From contig JAADGE010000070.1 of the NCBI GenBank assembly GCA_013152535.1, forward strand, positions 1 through 59,316: DNA of 59,316 nucleotides, given 5' to 3'. Numbering within the stretch: the stretch's first letter is position 1; each line of letters begins with the position of its first letter. This document shows, in pieces, positions 7,313 through 10,909 of this stretch. The position numbers and the translations under genes were made by a program. The DNA is from Chlorobiota bacterium (GTDB lineage Bacteria; Bacteroidota; Bacteroidia; Bacteroidales; JAADGE01). The notes below the pieces were generated by a model. It was not told the DNA's origin and made no database searches. It worked only from the letters and a program-made list of their open reading frames with translations.

Positions 7313-8602
7313 ATGGCAAAAATTAACATAATAACCCTCGGTTGCTCTAAAAATCTCGTTGACAGCGAAAATTTGGCAACCCAAATTAACGATAAAAATA
7401 TAGAATTTACCTTCGACGAATTTAATTTCGATGCGGATACCGTTGTTATTAATACATGCGGATTTATTGCCGATGCTAAAGAAGAATCAATCAATACAAT
7501 TTTAGAATTTGCTAAAGCTAAAACAGACGGTAAAATAGATAACTTGTATGTAATGGGCTGTTTATCCGAAAGATATAAAGATGAATTAAGTAATGATATT
7601 CCTGAAGTTGATCAATACTTCGGTGTAAATGACATGCAGCAAATCGCGGAACAATTAAAAATTGATTATAAAAAAGAACTTCTCGGAGAACGGGTAATTT
7701 CTACTCCGAGCCATTTTGCCTATCTGAAAATTTCCGAAGGCTGCGACCGCACTTGTGCTTTTTGTGCCATTCCGCTTATCAGAGGTAAACATAAATCCGT
7801 TCCGCAGGAAATATTGTTGAGTCAGGCAAAAAATCTTGCCGATAAAGGTGTTAAAGAACTTATTCTTATTGCACAGGATTTAACTTATTACGGGCTTGAT
7901 ATTTATAAAAAACAAATGCTGGCTGAGTTAGTTGAAAAATTATCCGATATTAAAGCTATTGAAATTATCCGCTTGCATTATGCCTATCCTGCATCTTTTC
8001 CCGATGATGTTTTGAAAGTTATGAAAGAAAAAGTGAATGTAGCAAAATATATTGACATTCCCTTTCAGCATATAAGCGATTCTGTATTAAAAAGAATGAA
8101 ACGAAGACATAACAGAACGCAAACAATTGATTTAATAAAGAAGTTGAGAGAAGAAATTCCTGAAATAGCAATACGAACGACTTTACTTGTAGGTTTCCCG
8201 GGTGAAACGGAAAAAGATTTTGAAGCTCTGAAAAAATTTGTTAAAAAAATGCGTTTCGACCGTTTGGGTGTTTTTACTTATTCGGAAGAGGAGCATACAT
8301 TCGGCGGCGATAATTACGAAGATGATGTGCCCGAAGATGTTAAACAAGCACGTACCGATGAAATTATGGAAATTCAGCAACAAATATCTTATGAAATAAA
8401 TCAAACAAAAGTCGGTAAAGTTTTTAAAGTTATTATTGATAAAGAAAATGAAAATTACTTCATAGGCAGAACTGAATTTGATTCCCCCGAAGTTGATAAT
8501 GAAGTACTTATAAATAAAAATAAAAAATTGAAAATAGGTGAAATTTATTCCGTTAAAATAATTTCTGCCGAAGAATTTGATTTGTACGGAGAACTTATTT
8601 AA
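7313..8602 (+). CDS. rimO: Ribosomal protein S12 methylthiotransferase RimO
   Basis: A radical-SAM enzyme that methylthiolates the conserved Asp of ribosomal protein S12. This 429-residue protein has the N-terminal MTTase domain with its three cluster cysteines (LGCSKN, INTCGF, MGCLSER). The radical-SAM motif follows (EGCDRTCAFCAIP, near residue 145) with the RGKHKS extension typical of RimO, and a C-terminal TRAM domain (about 370-429). MiaB, the tRNA-modifying relative, is encoded separately at 21643, so both paralogues are accounted for. The umuD remnant starts 10 bp downstream and may have been co-transcribed. Confidence 0.96.
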   Translation: MAKINIITLGCSKNLVDSENLATQINDKNIEFTFDEFNFDADTVVINTCGFIADAKEESINTILEFAKAKTDGKIDNLYVMGCLSERYKDELSNDIPEVDQYFGVNDMQQIAEQLKIDYKKELLGERVISTPSHFAYLKISEGCDRTCAFCAIPLIRGKHKSVPQEILLSQAKNLADKGVKELILIAQDLTYYGLDIYKKQMLAELVEKLSDIKAIEIIRLHYAYPASFPDDVLKVMKEKVNVAKYIDIPFQHISDSVLKRMKRRHNRTQTIDLIKKLREEIPEIAIRTTLLVGFPGETEKDFEALKKFVKKMRFDRLGVFTYSEEEHTFGGDNYEDDVPEDVKQARTDEIMEIQQQISYEINQTKVGKVFKVIIDKENENYFIGRTEFDSPEVDNEVLINKNKKLKIGEIYSVKIISAEEFDLYGELI

Positions 8603-8612
8603 TTTTGAAATA

Positions 8613-8779
8613 ATGAAACTTATACCGATAAAAGAAATCGATAACTTTCAATTTTTTACGACTGATATCAGTACAAAACAAGAAATTCCCTTTTTTGCAT
8701 CTTCGGTGTCTGCCGGCTTTCCTTTACCTGCTGATGATTATGTGGAATTATCTCTTGATTTGAATAAACATCTTATTAA
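8613..8779 (+). pseudogene. umuD: umuD, N-terminal fragment (interrupted by IS110 element)
   Basis: UmuD is a LexA-like protein that self-cleaves during the SOS response and then partners translesion DNA polymerase V. These 55 codons begin at ATG 8613 (MKLIPIKEID) and include the cleavage region SVSAGFPLPADDY (Ala34-Gly35) and the start of the core (LSLDLNKHLI). After TTATTAA at 8773-8779 the frame leaves UmuD and stops at 8822 inside the element. The C-terminal half resumes at 10473. Joining them with one repeat copy restores KHLIKHPSATF with no frame error, as in intact UmuD proteins. Confidence 0.92.
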
Positions 8780-8873
8780 CCTTCTATGTTGTATTCCAAA
8801 TATTTTCAATACTTTTTATTAACAATCAAACAATTAGCCTTAGCAACCTTTAATTTCGGGCAATACGGAGCTT

Positions 8874-8943
8874 GAAAGTTTTCTTTACTTGGCAAGATTT
8901 ACCGGGTTCGATACCCGGCAAATCTTTTTAAAAAGAAACTTTC
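8874..8943. other. Nested hairpins with a T-arm-like tip inside the IS element
   Basis: The inner stem is AAGATTT/AAATCTT continuing, past one A-C mismatch, into CCGGG/CCCGG around a 7-nt TTCGATA loop (8894-8926), followed by TTT and then A's. The outer stem GAAAGTTTTCTTT/AAAGAAACTTTC (8874-8886 with 8932-8943) has one bulge. The tip is indistinguishable from a tRNA T-arm, but no tRNA body surrounds it. It may terminate transcription entering the element or belong to its noncoding RNA. Confidence 0.55.
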
Positions 8944-9005
8944 GGTATAAAACTTCGCCGTCAGTTACTTCACTTGGCAAAACAATATTTGATCTATAAA
9001 AACAC

Positions 9006-9081
9006 CCTTCTATTAACGGACAATACTGAGATGCCGCATTTCTGTGTTCAATTTTTACAGGTAAGAGCTGTAGCCTGAGTT
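9006..9081 (-). ncRNA. Candidate bridge-RNA donor-binding loop of the IS110 element
   Basis: Downstream of the transposase stop, 9006-9013 reads CCTTCTAT, identical to the first 8 bases of the element (8780-8787). Positions 9074-9081 read CCTGAGTT, the exact reverse complement of its last 8 bases (10465-10472). Both words stop flush at the element borders. IS110 bridge RNAs carry two donor guides, one matching one strand and one the other, on opposite sides of an internal loop, so this pair fits. The RNA boundaries, its strand and the target guides were not resolved. Only the donor-guide interval is given; the full RNA would be longer. Confidence 0.45.
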
Positions 9082-9167
9082 AAACAGACACCGTAAAGGG
9101 CCGCAAGGTTAACATAACAGTCTCTTGAATACCTTGAGAGTTTTTAGTCTCAAATTTGTTTATTTTT

Positions 9168-10238
9168 TTACACAATCTCAGTGACATATTCTTGTTCATT
9201 TTTCAGTACATATCTTATTCTGTTTAATACTTTTTTTGCTATTCTTACAATTGCCTCATTGGGGCTCATATTTAATTCTGTATATTTTAATATAAGTGCC
9301 GGATCTTGTCTTATTGCAATCCAAGCTGCTTCGATTAACGATGTTCTCAATAATTTGTTTGAACGTCTTGTGATATTTCCGGTTCTTTCTTTTTCTCCCG
9401 ATGAATTGGTTGACGGTATTAATCCGACATAAGAACTTAGCTTATCTAAATTTTTAAAGCGTTTTATTGTTTCTAATTCGGACAAAAATATAAAGGCAAT
9501 TATTAACCCGATACCGGGAACACTTGTTAATAATTTTATTGTTTTTGAAAATCTTGAATCTTTACTTAATCTTCTTAATTCTTTATTTATTTTTAATTGT
9601 TTTGTTCGTAAATGCTCTGCGGTATCAATTGTTTCTCGTAATACTAATGAACCTTCGGGCGTATTTGTTTCAATTTGTTTTACCCACTTTATAAAATTTA
9701 ATGACCAATATTTCGATGCGGTATCTAATTCTTGCGGTATTTCTTTTCCGTAAAATTTTAACATAGACTTTATTCTGTTTTTATGCCTGCCTAATTCTTT
9801 TACAATGGTTTTTCGATAACGTACTAAACTTCTCAACTCTTCTGTTTCTGTACTTAAAATATGTATTCCCGTAAGTTCACCGTTTTTAAGCGATTTTGCC
9901 AATTTGCGGCTGTCTCGTTTATCTTCTTTTTGACGTTTATCTTTATCAGTTGTGGGAATATCTGCCGGGTTTACTATAATATTTTTTATTCCGCATTTAA
10001 CAAGTTCACGATGAACACTGAAACCGCAAAATCCGGCTTCATAAACAGATAAATAATTACCTTCGGGAAAATTATTCTCCAAATATTTTTTTAAATCTTT
10101 TGCTTTCGGATTTTGTGAAAATGTTCTATAAACAATATCTTCTGCCATTATTGTTATTACCCAATTTTTAAAATGTACATCTATTCCGATGTAAATGTTT
10201 TGTTTCTTAAAAGAAATTTTTTTAATTTTAGATTGCAT
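9168..10238 (-). CDS. IS110-family DEDD transposase (recombinase)
   Basis: A 356-residue recombinase. The N-terminal RuvC-like DEDD domain shows Asp20 (YIGIDVHFKNW), Glu67 (SVYEAGFCG), and Asp106 with Asp109 (EDKRDSRKLAKSL). A central coiled coil follows (about 145-230). The C-terminal transposase_20 domain has LLTSVPGIGLIIAF and YVGLIPSTNSSGEKERTGN; the Ser near 281 is the expected catalytic serine. All key residues are present and the frame is intact, so the element could be active. In this family the protein works with an element-encoded bridge RNA that pairs with donor and target DNA. Confidence 0.95.
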   Translation of the reverse strand: MQSKIKKISFKKQNIYIGIDVHFKNWVITIMAEDIVYRTFSQNPKAKDLKKYLENNFPEGNYLSVYEAGFCGFSVHRELVKCGIKNIIVNPADIPTTDKDKRQKEDKRDSRKLAKSLKNGELTGIHILSTETEELRSLVRYRKTIVKELGRHKNRIKSMLKFYGKEIPQELDTASKYWSLNFIKWVKQIETNTPEGSLVLRETIDTAEHLRTKQLKINKELRRLSKDSRFSKTIKLLTSVPGIGLIIAFIFLSELETIKRFKNLDKLSSYVGLIPSTNSSGEKERTGNITRRSNKLLRTSLIEAAWIAIRQDPALILKYTELNMSPNEAIVRIAKKVLNRIRYVLKNEQEYVTEIV

Positions 10239-10314
10239 AAACTTCGATTTTTATATTAGTTTTTGGAATTACTAAATTATAAAATTAGAAGTTTATGCTT
10301 TTACAAACATACAG

Positions 10315-10472
10315 CCTGAGTTCGATATAAGCTTTGCTCACAGTTTCAAGGAATTAGTTCACAGACGACTCATATTTATGAAGTACTATCGGGATAATAC
10401 GAATAAATATGAGGAAGTATGTGGGCTAATTAATGAAATTTACAAGTAAAAAAATCTTATATCGAACTCAGG
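10315..10472. repeat. 158-nt hairpin region flush with the transposase-side IS end
   Basis: CCTGAGTTCGATATAAG at 10315-10331 is the exact reverse complement of 10456-10472, and the outer arm ends at the last base of the element. Between the arms, AATTAGTTCACA pairs with TGTGGGCTAATT (two G-U), and CTCATATTTAT pairs perfectly with ATAAATATGAG around a loop of about 23 nt. The whole interval can fold as one interrupted hairpin just upstream of the transposase gene. It could be a transposon-end recognition structure or a part of the guide RNA. Confidence 0.7.
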
Positions 10473-10762
10473 TTATTAAACATCCGTCCGCAACATTTTA
10501 TGCACGAGTAAAAGGCGATTCTATGATTGGTGCCGGAATTAACGACGGTGATTTATTAGTTGTTGACCGTGCAACGGAAATTTACGATAATTGTATTGCT
10601 GTTTGTATTATTGACGGAGAATTTACCGTTAAACGCTTAAAAAAAACAGCCGGAAAAATTCTTCTTATTCCCGAAAACAAAGAATATAAACCTATTGAAA
10701 TTTCAGAATTTAATGATTTCGAAGTCTGGGGAATTGTTGCTTTTGTTATTCATAAACCTTGA
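10473..10762 (+). pseudogene. umuD: umuD, C-terminal fragment
   Basis: This is the S24 peptidase half of UmuD. It begins IKHPSATFYARVKGDSMIGA with the catalytic Ser, and includes DGDLLVVDR and the catalytic Lys in GEFTVKRLKK. It is complete to the normal C-terminus (VWGIVAFVIHKP). An in-frame ATG at 10433 inside the IS element precedes it, so a 109-residue chimeric protein (14 IS-encoded residues plus the UmuD catalytic core) could be made if a promoter exists in the element. No umuC follows, so the polymerase partner must lie elsewhere or be missing. Confidence 0.92.
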
Positions 10763-10909
10763 TTTACCAATTATTTCTATTATTTTATTTTCATTAATAT
10801 CAGACAAATAAAATCCTTTTACTTGTTTGTTCAGAATCTCTTTTGTGGAAAGTAAGTTTTTTTTTCATCTGTAAAATACAAACCTTTTGCAGAATCAAAA
10901 TTTAAAATA
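10763..10909. other. Short gap with possible minus-strand gene remnant
   Basis: No plus-strand gene is visible. On the minus strand two overlapping frames look protein-like: FDSAKGLYFTDEKK, followed after a run of nine A's (minus strand) in another frame by STKEILNKQVKGFYLSDINE. No start codon or recognisable family was found. It may be the frameshifted tail of a lost gene, or chance. Confidence 0.2.

What the first reader, a model, noticed from the sequence alone, without database searches (positions are those of the whole stretch)
8613..10762. umuD split cleanly by an IS110 element; one 7-bp repeat restores the gene
Removing 8780-10472 plus one TTATTAA rejoins KHLI to KHPSATF in frame and gives a UmuD of about 149 residues with its cleavage site and catalytic Ser and Lys intact. 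Both halves are otherwise undamaged, so the insertion is recent, and it fixes the element ends to the base. No umuC follows.
Basis: partly seen in the sequence, partly recalled or inferred. Interest (0 to 1): 0.7.

Follow-up and report, generated by a model that had tools for sequence, protein, structure and literature searches.

The report
Two nested mobile elements split umuD
A DNA-damage-response gene (umuD) was broken by a tiny IS982-type element, and an IS110 element, probably steered by its own RNA, later landed inside that tiny element's end, so what looked like one insertion is two, of known kinds.

Summary
umuD is interrupted between two TTATTAA copies (8773-8779, 10473-10479), and joining the flanks over one copy gives an intact 149-aa UmuD. 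Three congeneric genomes (G006, G009, G013) have an uninterrupted umuD at the same place beside the same upstream gene.

First, a 160-bp non-coding element (MITE) with IS982-type inverted ends (ACCTGAGTTCGATATAAG...CTTATATCGAACTCAGGT) entered umuD and duplicated TATTA. The 7-bp repeat is that duplication plus one chance-matching base on each side. Second, an IS110-family element (IS1111 layout, 1535 bp core to core) entered the MITE's left inverted repeat at ACCT^GAG, leaving a CT core at 8781-8782 and 10316-10317. So the IS110 ends about 157 bp short of the right boundary given. Its downstream non-coding region carries AACTCAGG, identical to the inverted-repeat target; in five relatives (47-75% identical) the same position resembles their own insertion sites. 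This fits bridge/seekRNA targeting of another element's end, as known for IS4321/IS5075.

umuC lies elsewhere and is frameshifted. G003, with the most similar DNA here, has lost both genes differently. Solo IS110 right ends stay unexplained.

The parts
8613..8778 (+). umuD, 5' part (codons 1-55 and the first base of codon 56; includes one TSD copy)
   Evidence: weak match of the N half to NF007621 (26.7 bits)
8774..8778 (.). left copy of the 5-bp target duplication TATTA made by the IS982-type element
8779..8782 (.). outer end ACCT of the IS982-type MITE, cut off from the rest by the IS110 insertion; CT at 8781-8782 is one copy of the IS110 core
8783..10315 (-). IS110-family element body (IS1111 layout); with one CT core 1535 bp
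   Evidence: ends agree with relatives L136, L120, L137, L123
8783..9167 (-). long non-coding region downstream of the transposase gene, candidate bridge/seekRNA region
   Evidence: long unchanged blocks in C7 and L136, with a hairpin that by eye keeps pairing through changes
9074..9081 (-). candidate left target guide AACTCAGG (minus strand), identical to the MITE inverted-repeat target
9007..9013 (-). candidate left donor guide ATAGAAG (minus strand), identical to the element's own right end plus core
   Evidence: 7 of 7 elements at +60 to +66 from the target-guide anchor; a right end with the same 7 bases found in 6 of 7
9168..10238 (-). IS110-family DEDD transposase gene, 356 aa, open
10316..10317 (.). 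second copy of the IS110 core CT
10318..10473 (.). remainder of the IS982-type MITE (160 bp in all with 8779-8782), shorter than the ~262-279-bp longest copies of the family
10474..10478 (.). right copy of the TATTA target duplication
10474..10762 (+). umuD, 3' part (includes the other TSD copy); a longer ORF from 10433 starts inside the MITE

Best explanation
Two successive insertions. (1) A short non-coding element (MITE) with IS982-type inverted repeats inserted in codons 54-56 of umuD and duplicated TATTA; this broke the gene. It was presumably moved in trans by an IS982 transposase, of which one copy with an open frame exists in the genome. (2) An IS110-family element of IS1111 layout then inserted in the MITE's left inverted repeat, 4 bp from its outer end, by recombination at a CT core (AG on the transposase strand). 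Its target was chosen by an RNA from the region downstream of the transposase gene, whose left guide AACTCAGG matches the inverted repeat. Shown from sequence: the boundaries, the TATTA and core duplications, the repeat family, the empty site in relatives, and the resemblance of the guide position to the target in six elements. Inferred: the order of the two events, that the RNA is made and used, and that IS982 transposase moved the MITE.
For: Empty site at the orthologous place in G006, G009, G013. Window 10315-10453 matches 8 other places of the genome at 86-95%. The IS982-type end occurs 37 times at up to 2 mismatches, the window's own two included, 0 for the reversed control. An IS982 copy with an open frame (C74; NF033520 275.8 bits, cut-off 130) has such ends and is flanked by TTATTAA twice; another IS982 start (C17:33160, cut by the contig end) has the same 16 bases. 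Of 12 two-ended copies not joined to IS110, 8 have flanking 5-mers alike in at least 4 of 5 places and 4 in all 5; re-pairing flanks at random reaches the total 10 times in 50000. Leaving out the IS110 body gives ACCTGAG...CTCAGGT between TATTA copies. The two IS110 left-end junctions found (C71, C81) read ACATACAG|CCTGAG in such a repeat. L136 (75% identical transposase) sits at GACTCAGG^TTATTAG. The 8 nt ending in the core agree with the guide position at 7, 7, 7, 7, 6 and 6 of 8 places in the six elements; without the AG, guide and own flank agree at 28 of 36, reached by 4 of 720 permutations, the fewest possible since two pairs of elements share a guide.
Against: The anchors that mark the guide position were picked by eye after I had seen the matches. 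One element at a time the support is weak: shuffled flanks reach the best score anywhere in the RNA in 238, 169, 107, 91, 1840 and 1930 of 2000 (window, L136, L120, L137, L123, L121). In the window RNA another place (+24) matches equally well; in L123 two others and in L121 four others do. No right target guide was identified. Four of the 12 IS982-type copies show no clear duplication. L136's target was not shown to be an inverted repeat: no partner end was found. The minimum-energy folds show no one common target loop.
Confidence: 0.9

Rival explanations
1. One reading: a single IS110 element of 1693 bp (8780-10472) inserted in umuD with a 7-bp target duplication.
For: The 7-bp direct repeat is exact and restores the gene.
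Against: 10318-10473 is part of a repeat family with its own matched ends and duplications, present without IS110 at many sites; relatives of the IS110 end at the CT/AG core; C74 shows the same TTATTAA pair around an IS982.
Confidence: 0.03
2. The IS110 was already inside this MITE elsewhere, and the 1.7-kb composite then moved into umuD as one unit by IS982-type transposition.
For: The TATTA duplication flanks the composite just as it would flank the MITE; 7 of 9 solo IS110 right ends also sit next to TAATA or TATTA.
Against: In the composite the left inverted repeat is reduced to 4 bp (ACCT), so a transposase that needs the repeat should not recognise it (inference).
Confidence: 0.06
3. The split is an assembly artefact.
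For: The genome is in 92 contigs and several contigs end in these repeats (C7, C11, C17, C38, C47).
Against: The contig runs through both junctions; the C81 junction and L136 reproduce the IS110 end; both duplications are exact.
Confidence: 0.01

Closest known systems
[quoted passage not shown]
   Same: DEDD element whose target is the inverted repeat at the end of another mobile element; IS1111-type elements have a long non-coding region downstream of the transposase gene
   Different: The victim here is an IS982-type MITE; the subterminal inverted repeats are short and imperfect. The precedent was seen only as a reference title, a mention of the IS4321 target, and a search listing.
Bridge RNA of IS621 / seekRNA of IS1111 elements (PMC11208160, PMC11187229; passages seen)
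   Same: Non-coding region with separate matches to the target and to the element's own end, and a short core at both ends
   Different: RNA not shown to be made; right guides not identified; core read as AG on the transposase strand
IS982 family and its non-autonomous derivatives (MITEs)
   Same: Same inverted repeat and duplicated AT-rich target as an IS982 copy in the same genome
   Different: The 160-bp MITE is too short to code a transposase; likeness of its interior to IS982 was not tested

Membership tests
IS110 family | DEDD (PF01548) and Transposase_20 (PF02371) domains | tested here: met
   58.8 and 80.9 bits, both over cut-off; NF033542 200.4 bits, cut-off 140
IS110 family | insertion at a specific site with a short core at both ends | tested here: met
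   CT at 8781-8782 and 10316-10317; as AG on the transposase strand at both ends of L136, L120, L137, L123
IS110 family | circular intermediate | not testable with these tools
   needs reads or PCR
IS1111 group | long non-coding region downstream of the transposase gene | tested here: met
   385 nt downstream (8783-9167) against 77 upstream (10239-10315), counted; criterion, with exceptions, from passages of PMC11187229
IS1111 group | subterminal inverted repeats of about 11-13 bp | tested here: inconclusive
   TATGTTTGTA / TATGTTGTA in the window, longer with a one-base gap in L123 and L120
IS1111 group | transposase grouping in a tree | not tested
   no tree was built
Bridge/seekRNA-guided element | RNA segment matching the target and changing with it | tested here: met
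   with the by-eye anchors and weak single-element controls told in the Against line
Bridge/seekRNA-guided element | right-hand guides | tested here: inconclusive
   looked for by eye; none convincing
Bridge/seekRNA-guided element | RNA made and bound by the transposase | not testable with these tools
   needs expression data
IS982-derived MITE | inverted repeats shared with an autonomous IS982 | tested here: met
   16 of 16 bases with the IS982 start at C17:33160; C74 IS982 ends 2 and 1 mismatches away
IS982-derived MITE | target duplication | tested here: met
   5 of 5 in the window; at least 4 of 5 in 8 of 12 other copies
IS982-derived MITE | moved by IS982 transposase | not testable with these tools
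   needs a transposition assay
UmuD | S24 peptidase domain and UmuD profile | tested here: met

The most novel reading that the evidence does not exclude
This IS110 lineage lives on IS982-type inverted repeats across the genome, and the 28-40-bp solo IS110 right ends, most of them next to an IS982-like TAATA/TATTA flank, come from an undescribed process that moves or leaves behind single IS110 ends.
Probability: 0.12. Interest if true: 0.5.

Novelty: new member of a known kind. Interest (0 to 1): 0.3.

Why it matters
It corrects the boundaries of an IS110-family element and shows that a clean direct repeat around a compound insert can belong to a different element than the one with the transposase gene. 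It also gives a small natural set (six elements) in which a downstream RNA guide position resembles the insertion site, including one that uses the end of another mobile element. For the host, it marks one of several separate lesions of UmuD and UmuC in this clade.

Tried and rejected
Rejected: a 7-bp target duplication by IS110. Rejected: that the absence of umuC next to umuD is part of the damage; in G006 and G009 umuC also lies apart. Not supported: that the solo right ends are internally shortened IS110 elements. The best match to the 18-base left end in the 1.0-1.8 kb downstream of ten of them (nine of this genome, one of G003) had at least 5 mismatches. Rfam search of 8500-10800 gave 3 matches, none at its family's gathering score. 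Single-sequence folds of the RNA gave no common target loop. Paper searches: IS982 with MITE and target site duplication, 0 papers; IS982 with IS110, terminal inverted repeat and 'inserted into', 3 papers, judged from the listing alone and not opened. In one search the permutation count (21 of 20000) took in C81, which is joined to IS110, and one chance pair in C74; those two of 14 rows were dropped and the count redone on 12 copies.

Full report
OBSERVATION. TTATTAA stands at 8773-8779 and 10473-10479. With the insert and one copy left out, umuD reads as 149 codons. The C-terminal half alone passes the UmuD model NF007621 (123.4 bits, cut-off 110) and has an S24 peptidase domain. It is the only S24 match found in the genome (1 match). 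Of 13 other genomes of the genus searched, 8 have a UmuD-like match. In G006, G009 and G013 it is intact (149 aa), 88-90% identical to the query from the C half, lies beside the same upstream gene, and runs without a gap across the joint, with two, one and one base differences in the 17 bases around it. In G002, G004 and G005 it is a diverged copy (54-56%); in G002 and G004, whose loci I read, a umuC-like gene sits beside it, and in G005 a umuC match lies close by on the same contig. In G003 a remnant without most of the 5' part remains, and in G010 the piece found is at a contig edge.

THE INSERT IS TWO ELEMENTS. A search of the genome with 8780-10480 showed that 10315-10453 recurs at 8 other places at 86-95% identity; one of them (C81) is joined to an IS110 left end, and C9 has a solo IS110 right end close by. 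The two-ended copies measure 51-279 bp, the longest 262-279. The end CCTGAGTTCGATATAA occurs 37 times with up to 2 mismatches (window's two included) and 0 times read backwards. A complete element with this kind of end lies at C74:15181-16221 and codes a 303-aa IS982 transposase. The genome-wide search for that model gave 4 matches: C74, two pieces of one broken-looking copy in C47, and a weak one in C45 below the cut-off. Flanks of 12 two-ended copies show a 5-bp duplication: at least 4 of 5 alike in 8 of 12, all 5 in 4 of 12, random re-pairing reaching the sum in 10 of 50000. The other four copies show no clear duplication.

BOUNDARIES. Leaving out 8783-10317 joins ACCT to GAGTTCGATATAAG and gives a 160-bp element, ACCTGAG...CTCAGGT, between two TATTA copies (8774-8778, 10474-10478). 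The 7-bp repeat is therefore TATTA plus, on each side, one base that umuD and the element's end happen to share. The C74 IS982 shows the identical TTATTAA pair with no IS110 inside it.

IS110 ENDS. A 75%-identical transposase in a Bacteroidales MAG (L136) lies between GACTCAGG and AGGTTATTAG with the same terminal sequences. L120, L137 and L123 (47-54% identical) end in the same way: AG, then five bases, then ATGTTTG on the left, and CAACATAGAAG on the right. L121 (52%) has the left end, but no right end was found; L122 has the left end and is cut by its contig. On the window's plus strand the core is CT at 8781-8782 and 10316-10317, and core to core the element is 1535 bp. A second left end in the genome (C81) is joined to the same position of another MITE copy. 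A further copy runs off the end of C7 (466 of 492 aligned columns identical).

GUIDE. The 385 nt downstream of the transposase gene hold long unchanged blocks in C7 and L136, and a hairpin that by eye keeps pairing through changes on both sides (not counted by a tool). Before an anchor that I picked by eye, the RNA strand reads AACTCAGG in the window, C7 and L136, ACCGATAG in L120 and L137, CTGAAAAG in L123 and TTATTTAG in L121. The insertion flanks read GAACTCAG, TGACTCAG, GCCGATAG, CCCGATAG, ATGGAAAG and CTAATTAG (window, L136, L120, L137, L123, L121). Matched pairs agree at 28 of 36 positions before AG; 4 of 720 permutations reach this, the minimum possible given shared guides. One by one the evidence is weaker: shuffled flanks reach the best score in 91-238 of 2000 for four elements and in 1840 and 1930 of 2000 for L123 and L121, and other places in the RNA tie with the guide position in the window, L123 and L121. 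A second motif, ATAGAAG, lies 60-66 nt further on in 7 of 7 elements and equals the element's own right end in the 6 where that end was found. This layout is what the seekRNA and bridge RNA papers describe for IS1111-type elements (passages of PMC11187229 and PMC11208160). The precedent for targeting another element's inverted repeat is IS4321/IS5075, seen as a reference title. L136's site was not shown to be part of an IS982-type repeat, so insertion into such repeats is shown for this genome only.

HOST GENE. The search for the Y-family domain IMS_C gave two matches: a DinB-like gene (C37) and a gene on C39 whose best model is UmuC (299.4 bits, under that model's cut-off of 431, as its start is out of frame). 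The C39 frame is shifted near its start relative to G003, G006 and G009; whether this is real or a sequencing error cannot be told here. In G003 umuC is in two pieces on two contigs, the first with an internal stop. In G006 umuC is open over 431 codons and in G009 over 425; one search lists one TAG in G009's larger 433-codon stretch. So UmuD and UmuC appear to be decaying in this genome and in G003, by different lesions. G003's umuD deletion spans the MITE site, so it cannot be told whether the MITE was once shared. dN/dS between the joined umuD and the three intact ones is 0.08-0.15, against 0.07-0.08 among the three (dS is high in most pairs), which fits a gene lost not long ago but dates nothing.

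VERDICT. A sound observation, a corrected interpretation, known kinds of elements. After the return for checking, the counts of empty-site differences, the guide ties, the C81 exception and the by-eye anchors were added; the odds of the main reading were left as they were, and the artefact rival was lowered from 0.02 to 0.01 so that the rivals add up.

Noticed in passing
L100-L108 (contigs C74, C24, C44, C66, C77, C78, C9, C15, C24 of the window's genome): Nine solo IS110 right ends of about 28-40 bp, 7 of 9 next to TAATA or TATTA, with no left end found downstream; 11 matches with the two IS110 copies, 0 for the reversed control. The C66 one appears beside similar flanking sequence in G003.
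   Followed up: partly
L104 around 1430-1540 (C77): One solo right end is part of a roughly 105-bp insertion absent from G003, fused to another ~65-bp repeat that also matches in C34, C53 and C78.
   Followed up: partly
L029, minus strand 1291-2600 (C39): umuC of this genome is frameshifted near its start; G003's umuC is split between two contigs.
   Followed up: partly
window 10433-10762: The 3' half of umuD is an ORF that starts inside the MITE and keeps most of the S24 domain (profile 20-115 of 116); whether it is expressed is unknown.
   Followed up: no
L116 / L012 around 70-170 (C81): A second IS110 left end in another MITE copy is itself cut by an IS982-type end, a third layer of nesting.
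   Followed up: partly
L137 ends of the element: The flanks of L137's IS110 read CCCGATAG and CTATCGGG, together a palindrome, suggesting another repeat-type target.
   Followed up: no
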